Shown one piece after another: positions 825-13,902 of a stretch of 43,131 nucleotides of DNA; position 1 is the first letter of the stretch; every line of letters starts with the position of its first letter. Origin of the DNA: Actinomycetes bacterium (GTDB lineage: Bacteria > Actinomycetota > Thermoleophilia > Solirubrobacterales > Solirubrobacteraceae); the NCBI GenBank assembly GCA_021846845.1, contig JAJZWB010000011.1:1-43131 (forward strand), written 5' to 3'. Under the pieces are notes generated by a model that did not search any database, was not told where the DNA came from, and worked only from the letters and a program-made list of their open reading frames with translations. Position numbers and translations under genes: made by a program.

Positions 825-2540
825 ATGGCCGCGATCGATCGTCGGATCGCCTGGCTCCTGGTCGGCTTCTTCGCGCTGCTCGGCCTGGCGGCGCTGCGAG
901 CCGGGCAGCTGGGCGTGCTGGACGCATCCACGCTGCGCCAGCAGGCGGTCAGCGAGCACGTCGTGGTTCAGCCGCTGCCGGCGCTGCGCGGCTCGATCGT
1001 GTCCTCCGACGGCATCACGCTGGCGATGTCGGAGGCAGCGGACGATGTGATCGCAGATCCGTTCCTGACGTCGGGGGCCAATGCGTCCACCAGCGCCCGC
1101 GAGCTCGCGCCACTGCTGGGAATGAGCGACTCGGCCGTGCTCGCCGGGCTCACGAAGCCCAACACCGGCTACGTGGTGCTGGAGCGTGAGGTCTCGACGG
1201 CGACGGCGCGCGCGATCATGGCGCTCGGGATCAACGGCATCTCCCTGAATCCCGACGTCAAGCGCGTGTACCCGCTGCCGTGGACGGCGGCCCAGGTGAT
1301 CGGCGGCGTCAACGCCGCCGGCGTCGGGGACGGCGGGCTGGAGCTCGAGTACAACAACGTGCTCGCGGGGCGGGCGGGCGAGCGTCGGATCGTCCAGGAC
1401 GCGCTCGGGCAGTCGCTGTCGGTCACCGACACGCGCGCGATGAAACAGGGCAAGTCGCTCAAGCTGACGCTGAACGCCGCGCTGCAGTCATACGTGGAGC
1501 AGGTCCTGGCCGGCGTGGGCGCGCAGTACCGGCCCACGAGCGCCACCGCGGTGGTGATGAACCCGGACACCGGCTCGATCCTGGCGCTGGCCAACTGGCC
1601 CCAGGTCAACGCCAACCAGCCGGGCCTGCCCAACGAGCAGGACTGGATGGACCAGGCGGTCGGCTTCAGCTACGAGCCCGGCTCCACGTTCAAGGCGATC
1701 ACGGTCTCGGGCGCGATCCAGGACGGGCTGATCAGCCCGAGCACCCAGATCTACGTGCCCTCTGTGCTCCAGGTCTACAACCGCCAGATCCACGACGCCG
1801 AATGGCACCCCGGCGAGATGATGACCGTCGCCCACATCCTGAAGGTCTCCAGCAACATCGGCGCCGCCAAGATCGGGATGATGCTCGGCCCGAACCGGTT
1901 CAACTACTGGGTGCGAAGGTTCGGCTTCGGGGCGCCCACCGGGGTGGATCTTCCGGGCGAGCAGACCGGGATCGTCCCCGAGCCCTCCCAGTACTCGGGG
2001 GTGTCGCTGGCGAACCTTCCGTTCGGCCAGGGGGAGTCGGTCACGCCGATCCAGATGATGACCGCCTATTCGGCGATAGCCAACGGCGGCTGGCTGCGAT
2101 CGCCTCACATCGTCTCGTCGATCGGCGGCAAGCCGACGCCGCTGCCCCCCGCCCACCGGATCATCTCCGCGCAGACGGCCGCCGACCTCCGCGACATGCT
2201 GCGAGGCGTGCTCGACGACGGCGGGACCGCCTCCGGGGCGGCGATCCCGGGCTACGACCTGGCCGGCAAGACGGGGACCTCGAACGTCGCGATCAACGGC
2301 CAGTACTCCAACACCGAGTTCGTCGCGTCGTTCATCGGGATGGTGCCGGCGGCCGCTCCGAAGCTGGTGGTCGAGGTGATGGTCTACGAGCCCCAGGGTT
2401 CGATCTACGGCGGCCAGGTGGCGGCACCGGCGTTCAAGCGGATCGTCGGCTGGGCCGTCCCCTACTTCGGCATCAACCCCAACCCGGCGAACGTGAACAC
2501 CAACCCGGCCACCGCCTCGGCGAGCATCCCCGGCGGCTGA
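825..2540 (+). CDS. ftsI: Peptidoglycan D,D-transpeptidase FtsI (class B PBP)
   Basis: This septal class B penicillin-binding protein cross-links peptidoglycan at the division site. The 571-residue protein has an N-terminal membrane anchor (residues 9-30), a PBP dimerisation region containing RGSI, and a C-terminal transpeptidase domain. All three active-site motifs are present: S287-T-F-K, S342-S-N344 and K482-T-G484. The signature GQGESVTPIQMMTAYSAIANGG region is also there. No PASTA domain follows; the protein ends in a short Asn/Pro/Thr tail. The ATG at 825 lies 10 bases after the ftsL stop. FtsI acts with FtsW (7851) on lipid II made by the neighbouring mur genes. Confidence 0.96.
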   Translation: MAAIDRRIAWLLVGFFALLGLAALRAGQLGVLDASTLRQQAVSEHVVVQPLPALRGSIVSSDGITLAMSEAADDVIADPFLTSGANASTSARELAPLLGMSDSAVLAGLTKPNTGYVVLEREVSTATARAIMALGINGISLNPDVKRVYPLPWTAAQVIGGVNAAGVGDGGLELEYNNVLAGRAGERRIVQDALGQSLSVTDTRAMKQGKSLKLTLNAALQSYVEQVLAGVGAQYRPTSATAVVMNPDTGSILALANWPQVNANQPGLPNEQDWMDQAVGFSYEPGSTFKAITVSGAIQDGLISPSTQIYVPSVLQVYNRQIHDAEWHPGEMMTVAHILKVSSNIGAAKIGMMLGPNRFNYWVRRFGFGAPTGVDLPGEQTGIVPEPSQYSGVSLANLPFGQGESVTPIQMMTAYSAIANGGWLRSPHIVSSIGGKPTPLPPAHRIISAQTAADLRDMLRGVLDDGGTASGAAIPGYDLAGKTGTSNVAINGQYSNTEFVASFIGMVPAAAPKLVVEVMVYEPQGSIYGGQVAAPAFKRIVGWAVPYFGINPNPANVNTNPATASASIPGG

Positions 2541-2632
2541 CCGGGCCCGGTCGAGCCCGTGCACCTCGACCCGGAGCCAGGTCGGCGCTCGGCGGATCCG
2601 CTCTCCGGAGGTCCGACGGCCGCCCCGGCGGC

Positions 2633-2638
2633 TACGCT
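2633..2638 (+). promoter_or_regulatory. Candidate -10 box (TACGCT) before murE
   Basis: TACGCT lies 9 bases before the murE ATG in the 107-base gap after ftsI, and I see no good ribosome binding site between them. The same TACnnT-to-start spacing recurs before murD, murC, gmd and the amidohydrolase, which suggests near-leaderless transcripts. No clear -35 is visible here. Confidence 0.4.
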
Positions 2639-2647
2639 TGGGCCGCG

Positions 2648-4087
2648 ATGGACCTCGGGAAGCTGATCCCCGGCGCGCCGCCAAGCGCGCGGGAAGTCGA
2701 GATCGCCGGCCTCGCATACGACAACCGTGCCGTCGAGCCCGGCTCGCTGTTCTTCTGCGTTCCCGGCTTCGCGCGCGACGGGCACGACTTCGCCGCCGAC
2801 GCGGTGGCCAGGGGCGCCGCCGCGCTGGTGGTGGAGCGACCGCTCGGGCTGGGGGTTCCGGAGGTGATCGTGACCGACGCCCGCGAGGCGATGGCACCTG
2901 CCGCGGCGGCGTTCTACGGCGATCCCACGGCCGAGCTGCGGACGGTCGGGGTGACCGGCACCAACGGCAAGACCACGAGCGCGTTCCTGGTTCGGGCGCT
3001 GCTCTCGGCGGGCGGCGGGTCCGTCGGCCTGCTCGGCACCGTCAAGAGCGTGATCGGCGGGATCGAGCAGGAGGTGCACCGGACCACGCCGGAGGCGATC
3101 GACCTGCAGCGCACCTTCCAGCGCATGCTGGAGCTCGGCGATCGCGCCTGCGCGATGGAGGTCTCCTCGCACGCGCTGGCTCTGCACCGCGTCGACTCGA
3201 TCCACTTCGCGGCGGCGCTGTTCACCAACCTGACCCAGGACCACCTTGACTTCCACGGCACGATGGAGGGCTACTTCGCCGCCAAGCGCCGGCTGTTCGT
3301 GGACCTGGATCCCGCTGCGTCCGTCGTCAACGTCGACGACCCCTACGGGGCTCGGCTGGCGGCCGAGCTGCCGTCCGCGGTCACCTTCGCGCTGCGAGCC
3401 GACGCCGACTACCGAGCGACGGACCTGGTGACGGGCCTGCGCGGATCGACCTTCCGGGTGCTGGCACCCGACGGCGAGCTGGACTGCAGCTCGCCGCTGC
3501 GCGGCGAGTTCAACGTCTACAACGCCCTCGGGGCGCTCGCGACCGCGCGGGCGCTGGGCATCCCGGCCGACCGCTGCCTCGCCGCGATCGCCGCGGCGTG
3601 CGAGGTGCCCGGGCGGTTCCAGACGGTCGACGAGGGTCAGCCGTTCGCGGTCCTGGTCGACTATGCGCACACCCCCGATTCGCTTGAGAACGTGCTGCGC
3701 GCCGCGCGGGAGCTGACCGGCGCGCGACTGCACGTCGTGTTCGGCTGCGGAGGCGATCGTGATCGCGGCAAGCGCCCGTTGATGGGCGAGATCGCCCGGC
3801 GTCTGGCGGACCGCGCGATCGTGACCTCCGACAACCCGCGCTCGGAGTCGCCCGAGGAGATCATCGACGAGATCCTGCAGGGCGCGGGGCCCGGCGTCGA
3901 GCACGACGCGGACCGGAGGGCGGCGATCGAGCGCGCAATCGAGGGCGCGGACGCCGGCGACGTGGTCGTTATCGCCGGCAAGGGCCACGAGCAGGGGCAG
4001 GAGTTCGCCGGCGGCCTCAAGCTGCCGTTCGACGACGTGGCCGTCGCGAGGGAGGTCCTCCGGACGCGAGCCGCCGCTCCGCGATGA
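2648..4087 (+). CDS. murE: UDP-MurNAc-tripeptide synthetase (meso-DAP adding)
   Basis: MurE adds the third residue of the peptidoglycan stem peptide to UDP-MurNAc-L-Ala-D-Glu in the cytoplasm, using ATP. The 479-residue protein has the Mur-ligase P-loop G104-TNGKTT110, followed by the usual central and C-terminal ligase domains. The motif D395-N-P-R398 is the one that binds meso-diaminopimelate, so the cell wall is predicted to be DAP-type rather than Lys-type. I chose the ATG at 2648 because the longer open frame upstream is only the shadow of ftsI in another frame. The stop overlaps the murF start as ATGA (4084-4087), indicating coupled translation. Confidence 0.96.
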   Translation: MDLGKLIPGAPPSAREVEIAGLAYDNRAVEPGSLFFCVPGFARDGHDFAADAVARGAAALVVERPLGLGVPEVIVTDAREAMAPAAAAFYGDPTAELRTVGVTGTNGKTTSAFLVRALLSAGGGSVGLLGTVKSVIGGIEQEVHRTTPEAIDLQRTFQRMLELGDRACAMEVSSHALALHRVDSIHFAAALFTNLTQDHLDFHGTMEGYFAAKRRLFVDLDPAASVVNVDDPYGARLAAELPSAVTFALRADADYRATDLVTGLRGSTFRVLAPDGELDCSSPLRGEFNVYNALGALATARALGIPADRCLAAIAAACEVPGRFQTVDEGQPFAVLVDYAHTPDSLENVLRAARELTGARLHVVFGCGGDRDRGKRPLMGEIARRLADRAIVTSDNPRSESPEEIIDEILQGAGPGVEHDADRRAAIERAIEGADAGDVVVIAGKGHEQGQEFAGGLKLPFDDVAVAREVLRTRAAAPR

Positions 4088-5448
4088 GGGCCTGGACGGC
4101 CGAGCGGGTCGCCGGCGCCGCCGGCGCGCGCCTGCTGAGCGCGCCGGCGACCGCGGGGGGGCCGTCGCGCGCGACGATCGACTCGCGCACGGTCGGCGCC
4201 GGAGCGCTGTTCGTCGGCCTGCCCGGCTCGGCGCTCGATGGCGGCGCGTTCGCCGCGGACGCGCTCAGGGCCGGGGCGTGGGGGGCGCTCACCGCACCCG
4301 CCCATGCGGCGGAGGCGGCCGAGGCAGCCCGCTCGCGCCCCGAGGGCGCCGCGGTGATGATCGCCGACGATCCCCTGCTCGCGCTCCAGGAGCTTGCCGC
4401 TGCATGGCGGCGCGGGCTCGGCGCGCGCGTCGTCGGCGTCACCGGCTCGACCGGCAAGACGTCCACGAAGGAGTTGCTCAGGGCCCTGCTCGAGCCGCAC
4501 GCCCGCACGGTCGCCTCAGCCGCCAACTTCAACACCGAGATCGGGCTGCCGCTCGAGATCATCGGCGCGCCGGAGTCGACCGAGGCCCTGGTGCTGGAGA
4601 TGGGCATGCGCGGGCGCGGCCAGATCGCGCAGCTGGCGCGAATCGCGGCGCCGGAGGTGGGCGTGATCGTCAGCGTCGGGCCGGTTCACCTGGAGCTGCT
4701 GGGCACCGTGCAGAACATCGCCGCCGCCAAGGCCGAGCTGATCGCCGGACTGCCCGCCGGCGGCACGGCGATCGTGCCGGCCGACGAGCCGCTGCTGGCG
4801 CCTCATCTGCGCGCGGACGTCACGACCGTCACGTTCGGCGAGCGAGGTGACGTTCGCCTGGTCGGGCGCCGCGGTCGGCGGCTGGCGATCGATGCGTCCG
4901 GGCGCCCGGTCGAGCTGGAGGTCGACTTCCAGCAGGCGCACCTCGTCAGCGACCTGCTGGCCGCGGTCGCAGCGGCGCTGGCGGTCGGCGTCGTCCCGTC
5001 CGGGCACGTGGCCTACCAGCCGGGCGAGGGCCGCGGCCGGCGGCGGACGCTGGCGGGCGGCGTCACCGTCATCGACGACTGCTACAACGCCAACCCGATC
5101 TCGATGCGCGCCGCCCTCGACGACCTGATGGCCACCGTCGGAGCGCGCCGCGTCGCCGTGCTCGGGGACATGCTGGAGCTCGGGCCCGAGGAGCGCCGCT
5201 ACCACGTCAGCCTGGGTGAGCAGGCCGCCGCGGCGGGCGTCGACGTGCTGGTGGCGGTCGGCCGGCTGGCGGCGGCCGTGGCCGAGGGGTTCGCGGGCGA
5301 GTGCCACGCGCTCTCCGACGCCCAGCAGGCGTCCGAGGTGGTGACCGGGCTGCTCACGCCCGGTGACGTGGTGCTGGTCAAGGGCTCGCGCGGGGTAGGG
5401 CTGGAGCGGGTCTGCCGGGCGCTCGGGGCGCGGGAGGACACCCCGTGA
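4084..5448 (+). CDS. murF: UDP-MurNAc-tripeptide-D-Ala-D-Ala ligase
   Basis: MurF attaches D-Ala-D-Ala to UDP-MurNAc-tripeptide, the last cytoplasmic ligase step. The 454-residue protein carries the P-loop G121-STGKTS127 and, in the C-terminal half, the DDCYNANPISM motif typical of MurF. Its length is normal for the family. It overlaps murE (ATGA) and mraY (GTGA at 5445-5448), so the three genes are almost certainly co-translated from one message. Confidence 0.96.
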   Translation: MRAWTAERVAGAAGARLLSAPATAGGPSRATIDSRTVGAGALFVGLPGSALDGGAFAADALRAGAWGALTAPAHAAEAAEAARSRPEGAAVMIADDPLLALQELAAAWRRGLGARVVGVTGSTGKTSTKELLRALLEPHARTVASAANFNTEIGLPLEIIGAPESTEALVLEMGMRGRGQIAQLARIAAPEVGVIVSVGPVHLELLGTVQNIAAAKAELIAGLPAGGTAIVPADEPLLAPHLRADVTTVTFGERGDVRLVGRRGRRLAIDASGRPVELEVDFQQAHLVSDLLAAVAAALAVGVVPSGHVAYQPGEGRGRRRTLAGGVTVIDDCYNANPISMRAALDDLMATVGARRVAVLGDMLELGPEERRYHVSLGEQAAAAGVDVLVAVGRLAAAVAEGFAGECHALSDAQQASEVVTGLLTPGDVVLVKGSRGVGLERVCRALGAREDTP

Positions 5449-7858: not shown

Positions 7859-9146
7859 GGTCGCGGCGGAGCCGCGCCGCCGCGCCCGGATCATCGGCGC
7901 GCGCAGCCGCCGTCGCCCGGCGAGCGCGCGCGTCGCGCCGCCGCTCGAGCACCGGATCCTGATGACCGCGACGCTGTGCCTGCTGGCGTTCGGCTGCGTG
8001 ATGGTCTACAGCGCCTCCTCTCCGATCGGGATCTTCGGCGGTGGCAGCGGGACGGGCGAGTTCGTGCGCTACCTCGCCTTCGCGGCGATCGGCCTGGCCG
8101 CGATGCTGTTCCTGGAGCGCCGGGGCCTGACTCTGCTCGACGACAGGCTGATCAAGCTGATCCTGATCGCCGCGCTGGGCCTGCTGATGATCGTCCTGGT
8201 CCCCGGGTTCGGGGTCGACGTCAACGGCGCGCGACGCTGGTTCGCCGCGGGCCCGATCCAGTTCCAGCCCTCGGAGCTGGCCAAGCTGGCGCTGGTGCTC
8301 TACGCCGCGCGGTATCTCGGCGACCACCCGAAGTGGCTCGCTCACGGCTTCCGCCGCGCGATCGCCCCGATCGCCGTCTTCGTCGCGCCCGCCTGCCTGA
8401 TGATCGTGCTCGAGCCCGACATGGGCACCGCGCTGGCGGTCGCGGTGACGATCGGCGCGCTGCTGCTGGCGGCCGGGATGCCGCCGCGCCAGCTCGGCAT
8501 GCTGGCCGCGGGCGGCGCCGGCCTGGTGCTGCTGCTGGCGCTCGCGCGGCCCTACGAGGGCGCGCGCCTGTCGTCGTTCCTGCACCCGTGGGCCGTCGCC
8601 CAGGGCAACGGCTTCCAGGAGGTCCAGGGGCAGATCGCGCTCGGGTCGGGCGGGCTGTTCGGAGTGGGCCTCGGCAAGTCGGTGCAGAAGGTCTACTGGC
8701 TGCCGGAGGCCCAGACCGACTTCATCCTGGCGGTGGTGGGGGAGGAGCTGGGGGTGCTCGGGATCTGCGGCGTGATCTTCCTCTACGGGATGATCGCCTA
8801 CGCCGGGCTCCGGACCGCCCGCCGTGCCGCGACCCGGTATGCGAAGCTGCTGGCGACAGGCCTGACCTCGCTGATCCTCTGCCAGGGAATCCTCAACATC
8901 TTCGTCGTGCTCGGGCTGGCGCCGCTGACGGGCGTGCCGCTCCCGTTCATCTCCTACGCTCCGACCAACCTGTGCGTGATGCTCGCCTCGGTCGGGCTGC
9001 TGCTGAACATCTCGCGGCCCGGTGCGCGCCGGCTGAGGGTGGTCGAGGCGCCCGCGGGTGACGCCGACGCGGATCGTGATCGGCGCCGGCGGGACCGGCG
9101 GTCACATCGTGCCCGCGCTGGCGGTGGCCGACGCGCTGCGGGCTGA
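7851..9146 (+). CDS. ftsW: Septal peptidoglycan glycosyltransferase FtsW (SEDS)
   Basis: FtsW polymerises lipid II at the septum together with FtsI. The 431-residue protein has a basic cytoplasmic N-terminus, then about ten membrane segments. SEDS family motifs are visible: VMVYSASS, NGARRWF, QPSELAKLALV, EPDMGTAL and EAQTDFILAVVGEELG. The usual PFISYGGSS motif reads PFISYAPTN here, an unusual substitution. The last ~29 residues (after VVEAPAG) are Arg/Asp-rich and are read from DNA that also encodes the first part of murG in another frame. That 89-base overlap is either genuine or hides a small frameshift, because a stop exists at 9059-9061 one frame over. Confidence 0.93.
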   Translation: MAEVAAEPRRRARIIGARSRRRPASARVAPPLEHRILMTATLCLLAFGCVMVYSASSPIGIFGGGSGTGEFVRYLAFAAIGLAAMLFLERRGLTLLDDRLIKLILIAALGLLMIVLVPGFGVDVNGARRWFAAGPIQFQPSELAKLALVLYAARYLGDHPKWLAHGFRRAIAPIAVFVAPACLMIVLEPDMGTALAVAVTIGALLLAAGMPPRQLGMLAAGGAGLVLLLALARPYEGARLSSFLHPWAVAQGNGFQEVQGQIALGSGGLFGVGLGKSVQKVYWLPEAQTDFILAVVGEELGVLGICGVIFLYGMIAYAGLRTARRAATRYAKLLATGLTSLILCQGILNIFVVLGLAPLTGVPLPFISYAPTNLCVMLASVGLLLNISRPGARRLRVVEAPAGDADADRDRRRRDRRSHRARAGGGRRAAG

Positions 9147-10110
9147 CGGCGCGGAGGTCGTGTTCATCGGCGGCGAGCGCTCCGAGCGCGAGCTGGTGCC
9201 CGCGGCCGGCTACGAGCTGCACTCGCTGACGGTGCGCCCGCTGACGCGCGGGCGCCCGCTCGCTGCCGCGCGCGCCGTCGCGGTCGACCTGGGAGCGGTC
9301 GCCGGTGCCCGGGGCCTGATCGCCCGCCTGCGGCCGGCGGCGGCGCTCGGCGCCGGTGGCTACGCGGCCGGTCCGGTCGGCCTGGCGGCGGCGCTGTCGC
9401 GGGTGCCGCTCGTGCTGATGGAGGCCGACAGCCACCTGGGCATCACCAACCGCCTGCTGGCTCCGTTCGCACGGCGCGTCTGCCTGGCGGTCCCGATCAC
9501 GGGGCGCGACGGTGGGCGCTACCGTGTCACGGGACGCCCCATTCCGGAGCCGGCCGGCGACCGCAGCGCGGCGCGGGCTCGGTTCGCGATCCCTGAGGGC
9601 GATCGCTGCGTGCTGGTCTTCGGAGGATCGCAGGGGGCGCGGTCGATCAACGAGGCCGCGCTGGAGGCGTTCACGGGCGCCGGGTTCCGCGTCCTGCACG
9701 CCGCCGGAGAGCGTGATCTGGGGATGCTGCGAGCGCCGGGCCCCCACTACGACCTGCGCGGCTGGATCCCGGACCTGCGCGACGCGATCGCGGCCTGCGA
9801 CGTCGTCGTGGCGCGCTCCGGCGGCTCGGTCTGGGAGATCGCCGCCCACGGCCGCCCGATGGTCCTGATTCCCTACCCGCACTCGGCGGCCGGGCACCAG
9901 GAGCGCAACGCGGAGATCTTCGAGCGCCGCGGCGCGGCGGTCGTGATCGACGATCGGCAGCTGAACGGCGCTCGTCTCGCCCAGGAGGTGGGCAGGCTGC
10001 TCGCCGACCCGGGCCTGATGGCGGCCATGGGTCGCGCGGCCGCGGCTCTGGCACGGCCTCAGGCCGCGCGCGAGGTCGCCGACGAGCTGCTCGCGGCCGC
10101 CGGCCGCTGA
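9058..10110 (+). CDS. murG: Lipid II synthase MurG (GlcNAc transferase)
   Basis: MurG adds GlcNAc to lipid I at the inner face of the membrane, giving lipid II. The 350-residue GT-B protein starts with the glycine loop GAGGTGGHIVPA near residue 9, so the GTG at 9058 cannot be moved downstream. GAGGYAAGP, FGGSQGARSINE and the PYPHSAAGHQERNA acceptor/donor region are all present. The stop codon lies inside a hairpin shared with the convergent GH6-like gene. Confidence 0.95.
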   Translation: MTPTRIVIGAGGTGGHIVPALAVADALRADGAEVVFIGGERSERELVPAAGYELHSLTVRPLTRGRPLAAARAVAVDLGAVAGARGLIARLRPAAALGAGGYAAGPVGLAAALSRVPLVLMEADSHLGITNRLLAPFARRVCLAVPITGRDGGRYRVTGRPIPEPAGDRSAARARFAIPEGDRCVLVFGGSQGARSINEAALEAFTGAGFRVLHAAGERDLGMLRAPGPHYDLRGWIPDLRDAIAACDVVVARSGGSVWEIAAHGRPMVLIPYPHSAAGHQERNAEIFERRGAAVVIDDRQLNGARLAQEVGRLLADPGLMAAMGRAAAALARPQAAREVADELLAAAGR

Positions 10111-10143
10111 CCGCGGGTCGCCCGCCGGGCGCTCGGCCGGTCA
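10108..10143. terminator. Hairpin between convergent murG and GH6-like gene
   Basis: TGACCG (10108-10113) pairs with CGGTCA (10138-10143), and inside it CGCCC pairs with GGGCG. The two outer arms contain the stop codons of murG and of the opposing gene. No T-run follows, so this is an intrinsic-terminator-like element serving both directions at best. Confidence 0.45.
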
Positions 10144-11355
10144 GTATGGCCGGCTCGGGTAGCCGGGGCCGAGCTGCTGGTTCGCGCGCTCGGCGAGGCC
10201 GATCGCGTATGCGGGCCAGAACACTCCCCCGGGCGGCCCGCCGCCGCACCCGGAGCTGTTCCCTGGCGGGTGCGTCCACATGAACGCGTCAGCGTAGGCG
10301 AAGCCGGTGTCGGTGCTGTCAAGCGGCCCCAGGCCGCGTCCCGGCGGGTTGCAGAGATCCTCGTTGCCGTTCCTGACCCGGTTGCGCTCGAGCAGCGGCC
10401 CGCGGCCGTTGGTGGCGGTGTCGACGATGAAGTGGGCGCCGTGGGTGCGTCGTGCGATCGCGGTCGCCCATCGAACCTCGTTGATCGTCCAGTTCTCGTG
10501 AGTGTCGTTGGTGAAGAAGCCGCGGATGTGGCCGATCCCGACCGCGTTCAGGGCCCGGGCGGTGTAGCCGACGGAGTTGCCGTCGGAGTAGCCGGCCTCG
10601 AGGTAGACCACGGTGTGCGGCAGCGAGCCGATCGTGTCGACCTCGTAGCGGAGGGCCATCTCCCACGCGTGCAGCGAGCCGATCCTGGCCATGCACGCCG
10701 ACGAGCCGAGGCCGTCGATCTCCAGCAGGAAAACCGCCGGACGGCGGGCGACGGCCGCCGCGACCTCGTCGACGCGCCTGCGGAACACCGGCATGTAGCT
10801 GCGGATCTCGGCCGTGGTCGCGCAGCCGCCGAGCGCCGGGTGCAGGAAGTAGGTGTTGAAGATCGGGATCGTTCCGGGGTCGGCCTGCATGTTGGAGCAG
10901 AGGATCTTCTCGGTCTGGGCGAAGAGCGCGCCGGGCCCGCCACCCTCGGAGTAGATGCTGAGCCGCTGGGACTCCGGCTGCGAGGCGATGATCGACAGCA
11001 TCGCCACCTCGTGCGCGAGCGCCGGATCCGCGGCCAGCCTGGACCGCCACCGACCCGTTCTCAGCTGCGCCCGGAACCCGGCCCAGGACTCGCTGACCGG
11101 CAGCGTCGCGGGGTCCAGGCCGAGCAGCCGCGCGATCGCGCCCGCGGCCGCGCCCCGGGCGGGGCCGGGCACGAAGAACCGCGCCCCGGTGAGCGGATCG
11201 GCGCCGGGGGGCGTCGGCAGGTCCAGCGGGTTGGCCGCCTCGCGCCGCGCCGGGAACGGATCGGGGCAGAGCTGGCGCAGCCGCGCCGCGTGAGCGCTGC
11301 CGGCGGAGCGGGCGCCGGCGCCGGCGGGGGCGATCGCCACCGCCAGCAGCGACAT
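10141..11355 (-). CDS. Secreted glycoside hydrolase family 6-like protein
   Basis: The 404-residue protein has the GH6 (cellobiohydrolase/endoglucanase) fold signature in its C-terminal half: VVYLEAGYSDG, GFFTNDTHENWT, FIVDTATNGRGP, CNPPGRGLGP and DAFMWTHPPGNSSGC. LLEIDGLGSS matches the family's E-P-D region and keeps its aspartate. However, the segment aligned to the catalytic-acid motif (usually NxPxRDC) reads FLHPALGGC, and the late aspartate region (usually GECDG or GESDG) reads GNSSG, so the usual general acid may be missing. The visible ATG gives a signal peptide with no basic n-region. The frame continues upstream through an ideal one (RLRLSLALASTLAA), but only CTG at 11394 is available as a start there. 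It lies inside the dcw cluster on the opposite strand. It may act on envelope or external glucan; the substrate is unknown. Confidence 0.8.
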   Translation of the reverse strand: MSLLAVAIAPAGAGARSAGSAHAARLRQLCPDPFPARREAANPLDLPTPPGADPLTGARFFVPGPARGAAAGAIARLLGLDPATLPVSESWAGFRAQLRTGRWRSRLAADPALAHEVAMLSIIASQPESQRLSIYSEGGGPGALFAQTEKILCSNMQADPGTIPIFNTYFLHPALGGCATTAEIRSYMPVFRRRVDEVAAAVARRPAVFLLEIDGLGSSACMARIGSLHAWEMALRYEVDTIGSLPHTVVYLEAGYSDGNSVGYTARALNAVGIGHIRGFFTNDTHENWTINEVRWATAIARRTHGAHFIVDTATNGRGPLLERNRVRNGNEDLCNPPGRGLGPLDSTDTGFAYADAFMWTHPPGNSSGCGGGPPGGVFWPAYAIGLAERANQQLGPGYPSRPY

Positions 11356-11530: not shown

Positions 11531-12865
11531 GTGCCCGCAACCCAGCATTCCGACCCCGGGTCGCCGAGACCGTGGACCGGTCGACGCCTGCATCTCGTGG
11601 GGATCGGCGGCGCCGGGATGAGCGGACTGGCGCTCATCGCGCTCGCGCTGGGGGCCTCGGTGACAGGCTCTGACCGGGCGCCCTCGCCATACGGCGACCG
11701 GCTGCGCGAGCGCGGCGTGCAGCCGGCGATCGGACACGCCGCCGAGAACGTGCCCGAGGGCGCCGAGGTCGTCTACTCGAGCGCCATTGCGGCCGACAAC
11801 CCGGAGCGCCGGACGGGTGCCAGGCAGCTGCACCGGGCAGACCTGCTCGCCGAGATCGCGGCGCTGCGCCGTTGCGTGGCCGTGACCGGCACGCACGGCA
11901 AGACGACGACCTCCGCGATGATCGTCCACGCGCTGCGCGGCGCGGGTCTCGACCCGTCCTACGTGGTCGGCGGCGAGCTGCGGGGAACGGGCTCGAACGC
12001 GGGCTGGGGAAACGGCGAGTGGATCGTGGTCGAGGCCGACGAGTCCGACCGGTCGCTGCTAAAGCTGGCGCCCGAGATCGCCGTGCTGACCAATGCCGAG
12101 CTGGATCACCACGCCACCTACGCGTCGCGTCTGGACCTTGAGCGGACCCTGTCGCGGTTCATGGCCGGCGCCCGGGAGGCGGTCGTCTGGGACCGCCCGC
12201 GGCTGCGCTCGCTGTGCCCCGGCGCGGTCGGCTACGACACCGGTGAGGTCGTGCTCGGTCCGGAGGGATCGACGTTCTCCTGGCGCGGCCTGCGCGTCTC
12301 GCTGAGCGTGCCGGGCGCTCACAACGCGGTCAACGCCGCCGGCGCGCTGACAGCCTGCGCGCTCGCCGGGGCAGATCCGGCCGCGGCGGCCGCCGCGCTG
12401 GCCGACTTCCGCGGGGCTCGCCGGCGCATGGAGCTGCTGGGCCGGACCGCGCGGGGGGCGCGGGTGTACGACGACTACGCGCACCACCCGACCGAGGTCG
12501 CGGCGGCGATCGCCGCGGCGAGGACGCTCGCGCCCAGGCGCCTGGTCGCCGCCTTCCAGCCGCATCTGTACTCGCGCACGGCCGCGCTCTGGCGCCAGTT
12601 CGGCGCGGCTCTGGCTGCCGCCGATTCCGTCTGCGTCCTGCCCGTCTACGCGGCGCGGGAGCGGGCGCAGGACTTTCCCGCGGTCAGCGGGAGGCTCGTG
12701 GCGGCGGCGGCGGCGGACGCCGGCGCCGGCCGGCGGGTGGCCTGGATGCCGAGCCTCGAAGATGCCCGCGCGCACCTGCTCGCGACCCTCGGGAGCGATG
12801 ACGTGTGCCTGATGATGGGCGCCGGGAACATCGACTCCCTGGCGCGCTCGCTGGTCGCCGCCTGA
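11531..12865 (+). CDS. murC: UDP-MurNAc-L-alanine ligase MurC
   Basis: MurC adds L-Ala to UDP-MurNAc, the first ligase step. The 444-residue protein has the N-terminal glycine motif HLVGIGGAGMSGLA, the P-loop G120-THGKTT126, an EADESDRS segment, NAELDHHATY, and the C-terminal DDYAHHPTEV and FQPHLYSRT motifs, all typical of MurC. The GTG start lacks a ribosome binding site and follows a -10-like box by 6 bases. The gene restarts the dcw run after the opposite-strand GH6-like gene. No intact murB follows. Confidence 0.96.
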   Translation: MPATQHSDPGSPRPWTGRRLHLVGIGGAGMSGLALIALALGASVTGSDRAPSPYGDRLRERGVQPAIGHAAENVPEGAEVVYSSAIAADNPERRTGARQLHRADLLAEIAALRRCVAVTGTHGKTTTSAMIVHALRGAGLDPSYVVGGELRGTGSNAGWGNGEWIVVEADESDRSLLKLAPEIAVLTNAELDHHATYASRLDLERTLSRFMAGAREAVVWDRPRLRSLCPGAVGYDTGEVVLGPEGSTFSWRGLRVSLSVPGAHNAVNAAGALTACALAGADPAAAAAALADFRGARRRMELLGRTARGARVYDDYAHHPTEVAAAIAAARTLAPRRLVAAFQPHLYSRTAALWRQFGAALAAADSVCVLPVYAARERAQDFPAVSGRLVAAAAADAGAGRRVAWMPSLEDARAHLLATLGSDDVCLMMGAGNIDSLARSLVAA

Positions 12866-12889
12866 GTCGGGTTCCGGCCGCCCCTGCAT

Positions 12890-13021
12890 CTACCCTGGCC
12901 GCCGCATGCCCGAGCAGCCGGCATCCAGGTAGGTGTCCAGGTCGCGGGGTCGAACCTGGTGAAGGGTGCGCACGCCGTCGGCGAACTCGTCGTGAGAGAA
13001 CCAGACAACCAGCCAAGTCAC
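12890..13021 (-). CDS. Possible 43-residue ORF in the murC-ftsQ gap
   Basis: Reading leftward from GTG at 13021 gives a 43-residue frame with a gene-like mixed composition (VVWFSHDEFADGVRTLHQ, then RPRDLDTYLDAGC). By my count about 84% of its third positions are G or C, closer to real genes here than the plus-strand reading of the same bases. A weak GGAG lies just upstream. GTG at 13048 would lengthen it to 52 residues. I recognise no family. It overlaps a candidate murB remnant on the other strand; at most one of the two is likely real. Confidence 0.22.
   Translation of the reverse strand: MTWLVVWFSHDEFADGVRTLHQVRPRDLDTYLDAGCSGMRRPG
12891..12896 (+). promoter_or_regulatory. Candidate -10 box (TACCCT) after murC
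   Basis: TACCCT lies 9 bases before ATG 12906, which opens only an 8-codon frame (MPEQPASR). The spacing copies the boxes before murE and murD. It could serve transcription of ftsQ, whose start is about 200 bases further on. Confidence 0.3.
12905..12997 (+). pseudogene. murB: Possible murB remnant between murC and ftsQ
   Basis: In the murC frame, just past the murC stop, the bases read ARAAGIQVGVQVAGSNL and then VKGAHAVGELVVR. This resembles the MurB FAD-binding region, in which an A-R-A-x-G-L-P-V stretch leads into GAGSNLL and, about 8-10 residues later, G-L-V-V-R. It lies where many dcw clusters carry murB. Third-position GC is lower than in intact genes, as expected for decay. There is no MurB-like sequence on either side, so at most ~30 codons survive. 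The match was judged by eye against a remembered motif and may be chance. Confidence 0.3.
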
Positions 13022-13095
13022 GCAGCTCCGATCGGTGCGCGGGCCCACCGCGGCCCGGCCCGCCGCGCGCGCGGCGCGACGCCCGGGGGCCGTCC

Positions 13096-13902
13096 GTGAT
13101 CGGCGTGCGCGGGCAGGCCGCCACCCGAAGCCCCGCGTCGGTGGGTCCCGAACGCCGCGCTCGCTCGCTCGCGCGCTCGGCGACGGGCGTCCGACGACTG
13201 GCCTGGCGCGCGGTCGCGTCGCTCGCGCTGCTGGCGGCGCTCGCCGGCGGCGGCTGGCTCTGGCTGCGAGACTCGTCCCTGGTCGCGATCGACCGCGTCG
13301 TGATCGTCGGTGCCGGCGGACCGCAGGGGAGGCAGATCCGCCGCGCGCTCGATCTGGCCGCGCGCAACATGACCACGCTTGACGTGCGCCTCTCCGTGCT
13401 GAGGGCGGCCGTCTCGCCCTACCCGAGCGTCGTGCGCCTGAGCGTCACGACGAGCTTCCCGCACACGATGCGGATCAGCGTCCGGGAACGGCGCGCGGTC
13501 GCGGTCCTGAGCGCCGACGGGACCAGCGTCGAGGTGTCGCAGGACGGGACCGTGCTGCGCGATCAGGCGGTCGACCCGTCGTTGCCGGTGATCGAGCTGG
13601 CGGCCGATCCGAGCGGGCCGCGCGTGACGGGGTCGGCGATGACCGAGGTCGCGCTGCTGGCCGCCGCGCCCCGACCGCTGCTGGCCCGTGTCGGGCAGGT
13701 GTGGATCGACGCGGTCCACGGCCTGGTGGCACAGCTGCGCGGCGGGCCGCGGATCTACTTCGGCGGTGCCGGCCTGCTTGCGGCGAAGTGGGCGGCCGCC
13801 GCGGCGGTGCTCGCCTCGCCGACCTCCGCGGGCGCACAGTACGTCGACGTGACCGTGCCGCAGCGGCCAGCCGCAGGGTCCGGACCGGACGCTTCCGGGT
13901 GA
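13096..13902 (+). CDS. ftsQ: Cell division protein FtsQ/DivIB (POTRA domain)
   Basis: FtsQ links the FtsL complex to the septum. After a short basic cytoplasmic segment comes one membrane helix (AVASLALLAALAGGGWLWL). A POTRA-type domain follows, opening with LVAIDRVVIVGAGG and continuing to the TTSFPHTMRISVRERRAVAVL strand-helix-strand pattern, as in FtsQ/DivIB. I chose the GTG at 13096, which overlaps a TGA (13097-13099) of a short upstream frame; GTG at 13141 is an alternative. The longer open frame upstream has Arg/Pro-rich shadow composition and was not used. Length (268 residues) is normal. Confidence 0.88.
   Translation: MIGVRGQAATRSPASVGPERRARSLARSATGVRRLAWRAVASLALLAALAGGGWLWLRDSSLVAIDRVVIVGAGGPQGRQIRRALDLAARNMTTLDVRLSVLRAAVSPYPSVVRLSVTTSFPHTMRISVRERRAVAVLSADGTSVEVSQDGTVLRDQAVDPSLPVIELAADPSGPRVTGSAMTEVALLAAAPRPLLARVGQVWIDAVHGLVAQLRGGPRIYFGGAGLLAAKWAAAAAVLASPTSAGAQYVDVTVPQRPAAGSGPDASG

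What the first reader, a model, noticed from the sequence alone, without database searches (positions are those of the whole stretch)
10141..11355. GH6-like secreted protein inside the dcw cluster, catalytic acid apparently missing
An opposite-strand gene between murG and murC is unusual in a dcw cluster. The GH6 core motifs are clear, but the motif that supplies the catalytic acid (RDC) reads ALGGC and the late Asp region reads GNSSG. It may be a glycan-binding or differently acting protein tied to envelope growth.
Basis: partly seen in the sequence, partly recalled or inferred. Interest (0 to 1): 0.52.

Follow-up and report, generated by a model that had tools for sequence, protein, structure and literature searches.

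The report
GH6-fold protein with rebuilt active site
A secreted cellulase-like protein encoded among cell-division genes of a soil actinobacterium keeps the residue that starts the cutting reaction but has lost the usual partner residue and most sugar-gripping residues, so it is probably a rebuilt carbohydrate enzyme or binder and not an ordinary cellulase.

Summary
In detail: 10141-11355 (-) is a genuine, constrained gene for a 404-aa GH6-fold protein, opposite-strand between murG and murC. In GH6 the proton donor is the Asp of the E-P-D motif, and it is present (D214). Missing are the Asp of R-D-C, the presumed remote base (G177 here), and the late Asp (S368). This is not a quirk of one gene: the protein belongs to a clade of 62 sequences from 37 genomes, found here only in the window's order (Solirubrobacterales). 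D214 is invariant there (62/62), while residues near-invariant in 53 ordinary GH6s are mostly replaced, and an Asp (D258, 53/62) and a His (H286, 57/62) are new. The dcw position is old (10 of 13 close relatives sit in the slot, all opposite-strand) but dispensable (absent from 13 of 22 genomes whose slot could be judged); a link to envelope growth is unproven. Most likely: a secreted GH6-fold hydrolase re-tooled for a non-cellulosic glycan, using the conserved acid with a relocated or water-relayed base. Main rival: a non-catalytic glycan-binding pseudoenzyme. Both await assay.

The parts
10141..11355 (-). GH6-fold secreted protein P0001, 404 aa
10822..10842 (-). H172-PALGG-C178, place of the GH6 R-D-C motif; no acidic residue; C178 kept
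10714..10722 (-). E212-I213-D214, place of the GH6 E-P-D motif; D214 = catalytic acid, 62/62 in the clade
10576..10599 (-). E253-AGYSDGN-260: place of D-A-G-H-x-x-W; E for D, Y for H, D258 gained, W lost
10489..10509 (-). N283-DTHENW-289: place of N-x-S-N; T285 and H286 gained
10249..10272 (-). H362-PPGNSSG-369: place of K-x-P-G-E-S-D-G; K, E and D all replaced (H362, N366, S368)
9058..10110 (+). murG, convergent with the GH6 gene (30 bp between the two stops)
11531..12865 (+). murC, divergent from the GH6 gene (175 bp between starts)

Best explanation
It is a secreted GH6-fold hydrolase whose active site has been rebuilt. D214 still acts as general acid at the mouth of the barrel. The usual remote base (R-D-C Asp) has gone, and with it the residues that grip glucose at subsites -1/-2 and stack at +1. 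Water is activated either through a new acidic/His set (D258, H286, with E253) or through a long water wire, on a glycan that is not cellulose, probably a surface or extracellular polysaccharide. Shown: gene, fold, retained acid, lost residues, new conserved residues, clade, old dcw location. Inferred: catalysis, relocated base, substrate, any tie to envelope growth.
For: Acid D214 kept in 62/62 clade members against 52/53 ordinary GH6s, although nearly everything else in the site changed; a pure binder would be expected to let it drift. Acidic residue at 253 in 62/62, T285 62/62, H286 57/62, D258 53/62. In the model these motifs directly follow the barrel strands at 207-211, 248-253 and 279-282 (model numbering 183-187, 224-229, 255-258), that is, the catalytic face of such a barrel. 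Fold: pLDDT 86, Z 36.4, 1.9 A over 284 residues to Mtb Cel6. Residues that bind cellulose in TrCel6A (K395, E399, D401, W269, W367; PMC6091422 passages) are H362, N366, S368, G259, L334 here (K/E/D matched by the spacing of the motif, the two Trp by recalled numbering). Purifying selection: dN .23-.39 below dS .59-.81 in 7 of 7 comparisons with P0001. One clade, SH-aLRT 99. D175A in TrCel6A keeps 2-3% activity and simulations show water-wire rescue (PMC6091422), so lacking this Asp does not exclude catalysis.
Against: No activity, substrate or ligand is known. The gained and lost residues arose on essentially one branch, so their association is not independent evidence of functional coupling. 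No coordinates were available, so distances of D258/H286/E253 to D214 were not measured. D258 is another residue in 9/62, H286 is Q or D in 5/62, the late D is kept in 16/62, W259 in 19/62, and the R-D-C column holds D in 1/62 (the dcw-slot relative P0003) and E in 3/62, so the site is not uniform. The model's alignment was mostly ordinary GH6 (34 of 37 rows).
Confidence: 0.48

Rival explanations
1. Pseudoenzyme: the GH6 cleft is kept as a glycan-binding surface (lectin-like) at the cell surface, without hydrolysis.
For: Loss of the R-D-C Asp and late Asp in P0001 and of the sugar-binding K/E/W/R set; paralogues differ widely at these places; multi-copy family (up to six matches in one genome).
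Against: D214 invariant in 62/62, the acidic 253 in 62/62 and the new T285/H286 are strongly conserved at the catalytic face; no carbohydrate-binding module was found.
Confidence: 0.3
2. Ordinary cellulase or beta-glucanase that works slowly without its base through a water wire.
For: GH6 fold and acid kept; TrCel6A D175A retains 2-3% activity (PMC6091422).
Against: Residues that bind cellulose at -1/-2/+1 are replaced as well as the base; a 62-member clade is not expected to keep a crippled cellulase.
Confidence: 0.1
3. CslZ-like envelope enzyme (compatible with the best explanation): opens peptidoglycan or trims a surface glucan during growth, and its dcw position reflects co-regulation with wall synthesis.
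For: CslZ, a Streptomyces GH6 lipoprotein, hydrolyses cellulose, chitin and peptidoglycan and is needed with an LPMO for tip glycan deposition (PMC9040799 passages). 10 of 13 close relatives lie in the murG-murC slot, all opposite-strand. Another subgroup lies by alaS, with an mltG gene downstream in L060.
Against: Absent from the slot in 13 of 22 judged genomes, so not required; three close relatives lie elsewhere; no LPMO_10 match in the genome; no lipobox seen. Old synteny in dcw may be plain inheritance.
Confidence: 0.25
4. Decaying gene or misread frame.
For: Lost catalytic motifs; patchy presence in the genus.
Against: Intact 404-codon frame, codon-position GC .68/.58/.94, dN below dS in 7 of 7, and the pattern is shared by 62 sequences.
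Confidence: 0.02

Closest known systems
GH6 endoglucanases (M. tuberculosis Cel6 1up0, T. fusca Cel6A 1tml)
   Same: Fold (Z 36.4 and 33.1), catalytic acid, cysteine near R-D-C, overall motif order
   Different: R-D-C Asp, D-A-G-H-x-x-W, D-T-S-R-N-G Arg, W-C-N Trp and K-x-P-G-E-S-D-G replaced; extra N-terminal stretch; 26-33% identity in the structural alignment
Streptomyces CslZ (GH6 lipoprotein of the cslA-glxA locus)
   Same: Actinobacterial GH6 encoded beside envelope-synthesis genes, with the acid Asp; transcribed opposite to its neighbours
   Different: CslZ active site described as strikingly similar to other GH6s (PMC9040799); here no cslA-glxA neighbourhood, no LPMO_10 match in the genome, no lipobox
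Tunicate GH6-1 proteins
   Same: In many of them the Asp aligned to D221 is kept while signature 1 (with D175) is not conserved (PMC7464555 passages)
   Different: Animal, probably horizontally acquired, unrelated setting; activity undetermined there too

Membership tests
GH6 (Pfam PF01341 / CAZy GH6) | Profile match over the curated cut-off | tested here: met
   63.7 bits, cut-off 27
GH6 (Pfam PF01341 / CAZy GH6) | GH6 fold | tested here: met
   AF2 model pLDDT 86; Z 36.4 to 1up0; the 50 rows shown are GH6 proteins or scaffolds built on them
GH6 (Pfam PF01341 / CAZy GH6) | Catalytic acid Asp (TrCel6A D221) | tested here: met
   D214; 62/62 of the clade
GH6 (Pfam PF01341 / CAZy GH6) | R-D-C Asp (TrCel6A D175), in PROSITE signature 1 | tested here: not met
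   HPALGGC in P0001; Asp directly before the Cys in 1/62 of the clade and in 45/53 ordinary rows
[quoted passage not shown]
   VFLLEIDGLG has three mismatches; pattern as printed in PMC7464555, compared by eye
GH6 (Pfam PF01341 / CAZy GH6) | Late Asp (TrCel6A D401) | tested here: not met
   S368; D in 16/62 of the clade, 53/53 ordinary
GH6 (Pfam PF01341 / CAZy GH6) | Inverting hydrolysis of beta-1,4-glucan | not testable with these tools
   Needs protein and substrate
CslZ-type envelope GH6 | Beside cslA-glxA | tested here: not met
   Neighbours are murG and murC
CslZ-type envelope GH6 | GlxA-like oxidase in the genome | tested here: inconclusive
   PF09118: no match in G000, but no control genome rang either
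CslZ-type envelope GH6 | Partner LPMO in the genome | tested here: not met
   PF03067: no match in the 95.3% complete genome; one control rang
CslZ-type envelope GH6 | Lipoprotein | tested here: not met
   By reading: first Cys is C30 in RQLC, no lipobox (consensus recalled)

The most novel reading that the evidence does not exclude
The Solirubrobacterales clade is a new lineage of the GH6 fold in which the catalytic base has moved from the R-D-C loop to a new Asp/His pair (D258/H286, with the acidic 253) around an unchanged acid, acting on a so far unknown bacterial surface glycan; it would deserve its own family or subfamily.
Probability: 0.3. Interest if true: 0.68.

Novelty: new variant of a known kind. 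Interest (0 to 1): 0.48.

Why it matters
The identity of the GH6 catalytic base is still debated (PMC6091422, PMC5968413). A natural clade that keeps the acid in every member while having dropped the presumed base and the cellulose grip makes the question directly testable, and it points to an uncharacterised glycan activity in a little-studied order of soil actinobacteria. It also warns that a GH6 label in these genomes need not mean cellulase: both GH6 matches found in this genome are of the odd type.

Tried and rejected
Pseudogene or misread frame: rejected. 'Catalytic acid missing': rejected, the acid is D214. Conserved gene neighbours as a clue to substrate: ORF clusters were shared almost only within subgroups; the 30 neighbouring proteins annotated give no common pathway: GGDEF/EAL proteins in some, mnmA/alaS in others, an Rv2525c-like GH near the own paralogue. 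The first structure job (3 sequences) was poor, pLDDT 46, and is not used. Sign test of coupled gain and loss on the tree: only 2-4 independent pairs, uninformative. Promoter scan: no sigma-70-like site. Rfam: nothing. NCBIfam: no family. Literature: searches for GH6 with Solirubrobacter, for GH6 pseudoenzymes, for dcw/murG/Solirubrobacterales with glycoside hydrolase, and for GH6-like proteins without a base (listings only) showed nothing on this clade. Roles of TfCel6A N190/H159/W162 were not found in the library.

Rows dropped: of 121 GH6 ORFs found in L035-L142, 4 under 200 aa were left out, P0001 and 1up0 were added, then 4 partial rows dropped, giving 115. Of the 35 GH6 places outside G000 in the phylum sample, 28 had loci and were examined. 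The label 'RD' also took R-S-C as R-D; one search gives the strict counts. In the count of 13 close relatives three partial matches with high local identity (G004:C46, G002:C114, G002:C663) were not counted; the partial one of G018, which lies beside murG, was.

Full report
What is there. The ORF 10141-11355 (-) encodes 404 aa (P0001) and lies between murG and murC, both on the + strand. It converges with murG and diverges from murC. Its codon-position GC (.68/.58/.94) and dN below dS against seven relatives (dN .23-.39, dS .59-.81; dS is probably underestimated at this GC content) show a real, constrained gene. Pfam gives GH6 at 63.7 bits (cut-off 27). The nearest solved proteins are M. tuberculosis Cel6, a compost GH6 endoglucanase (6fao) and T. 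fusca Cel6A. A model built on 37 sequences, 34 of them GH6s from viral contigs, has pLDDT 86 and pTM 0.89 and matches Mtb Cel6 at Z 36.4, 1.9 A over 284 residues. The organism's order is read from the titles of two records ('Solirubrobacterales bacterium') whose contigs have the same lengths as contigs of two genomes of its genus.

Which residues are missing. The papers read (passages only: PMC6091422, PMC5968413, PMC9040799) place the catalytic acid in the E-P-D motif (TrCel6A D221, TfCel6A Asp117, CslZ Asp120) and treat the R-D-C Asp (D175/Asp79) as a candidate remote base, still debated. On the alignment to 1tml (positions counted by hand) D117 is D214 of P0001, D156 is E253, H159 is Y256, A161 is D258, W162 is G259, N190 is H286, W231 is L334, K259 is H362, E263 is N366 and D265 is S368. 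So the acid is present, and the base candidate and the late Asp are absent. In TrCel6A, K395, E399 and D401 bond the glucose at -1/-2, and W269 and W367 interact with the chain. Their counterparts here are all replaced (the Trp counterparts by recalled numbering).

A clade, not an accident. GH6 sequences were gathered from 61 genomes, the window's own and 60 relatives (32 with a match), 201 genomes of the order (44 with GH6) and 246 of the phylum (18 with GH6). In a tree of 115 rows (quick IQ-TREE, trait columns left out) P0001 falls in a group of 62 rows (SH-aLRT 99) from 37 genomes (counted by hand), all in the window's order; the other 53 are ordinary. Counts, clade against ordinary: acid D214 62/62 against 52/53; Asp directly before the Cys 1/62 (plus 3 Glu) against 45/53; W at 259 19/62 against 52/53; R at 315 53/53 and K at 362 53/53 in ordinary rows but not among the commonest residues in the clade; W at 334 5/62 against 49/53; late Asp 16/62 against 53/53; H286 57/62 against N in 50/53; D258 53/62 against 5/53; acidic 253 62/62 against D in 53/53. 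Among 16 diverse clade members E212, D214, N283, T285, H286 and W289 are invariant. The changes sit on essentially one branch, so they are one historical event and not repeated evidence of coupling. Both GH6 matches found in the host genome belong to the clade.

The slot. Thirteen sequences are close relatives (full-length matches of 46% identity or more, P0001 included, plus a partial one in G018). Ten lie in the murG-murC slot, all on the strand opposite to murG/murC: G000, G007, G009, G011 (two in tandem), G014 and G015 with both sides seen; G018 and G027 beside murG only; G004 beside murC only. Three lie elsewhere (G001, a third copy in G011, a second in G009). Of 28 genus genomes, 9 have it in the slot, 13 do not (12 short junctions, and G022, where 7.7 kb of other genes lie there) and 6 are unresolved. 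On a MurG+MurC tree the 9 fall on both sides of the midpoint root, needing 5 changes. G014 and G015 pair in both the species and GH6 trees; G000 pairs with G011 in the species tree, and P0001 groups with G011 copies in the GH6 tree. This suggests an old insertion inherited vertically and lost several times. The gene is therefore long-lived there but not required.

Mechanism. Because the acid never varies while the cellulose grip is gone and new polar residues are fixed in loops that follow the barrel strands, I favour a re-tooled hydrolase over a binder, at about 0.48 against 0.30. The base could be D258/H286/E253 or a water wire; TrCel6A D175A keeps 2-3% activity. CslZ shows that an actinobacterial GH6 can act on wall glycans, but the window has none of that system's neighbours and the genome has no LPMO_10 match, so an envelope role is a hypothesis. 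No activity was tested and atomic distances could not be measured.

Noticed in passing
12866-13160: No murB lies between murC and ftsQ here, though a MurB-like reading frame does in relative G007 (L038, about 12550-13640); the only MurB_C match of this genome is on another contig (G000:C187:23145-23570).
   Followed up: partly
L167-L246: At least 115 stretches of IMG/VR viral contigs encode ordinary GH6 (80 fetched); many are about 285 aa without an evident signal peptide and keep R-D, E-P-D, N-V-S-N and P-G-E-S-D-G. The one tested (L175) has no PHROG match.
   Followed up: partly
L155:1644-3212: GH6 domain inside a 523-aa protein of a 132-kb viral contig, after two proteins that look like phage structural genes (by eye); its C-terminal part matches phrog_14065.
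   Followed up: no
L036:8414-11299: Two GH6 copies in tandem in the murG-murC slot of G011, with a third on another contig.
   Followed up: partly
L040:5824-9370: In G015 the slot also holds MpsC-like, ECF sigma factor and GGDEF genes; in G022 (L143) it holds AAA/LuxR, oxidoreductase and BBE genes without GH6.
   Followed up: no
L060:8454-16124, L064:2814-8482: Another GH6 subgroup sits on the opposite strand beside a NifU-mnmA fusion, with alaS on its other side in L064; in L060 an mltG (YceG) gene follows.
   Followed up: no
10144-10170: Close relatives end in a conserved P-Y carboxyl terminus, mostly S-x-P-Y (P-W in L044 and in the sister subgroup).
   Followed up: no
L053:3-821 and 2430-4769: The genome's second GH6 (cut by a contig end) is also of the base-less type and lies near a protein with an Rv2525c-like glycoside-hydrolase domain.
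   Followed up: no
L104-L113: Ten clade rows replace R-D-C by a conserved P-W-E a few residues before the cysteine position, possibly a different base.
   Followed up: no
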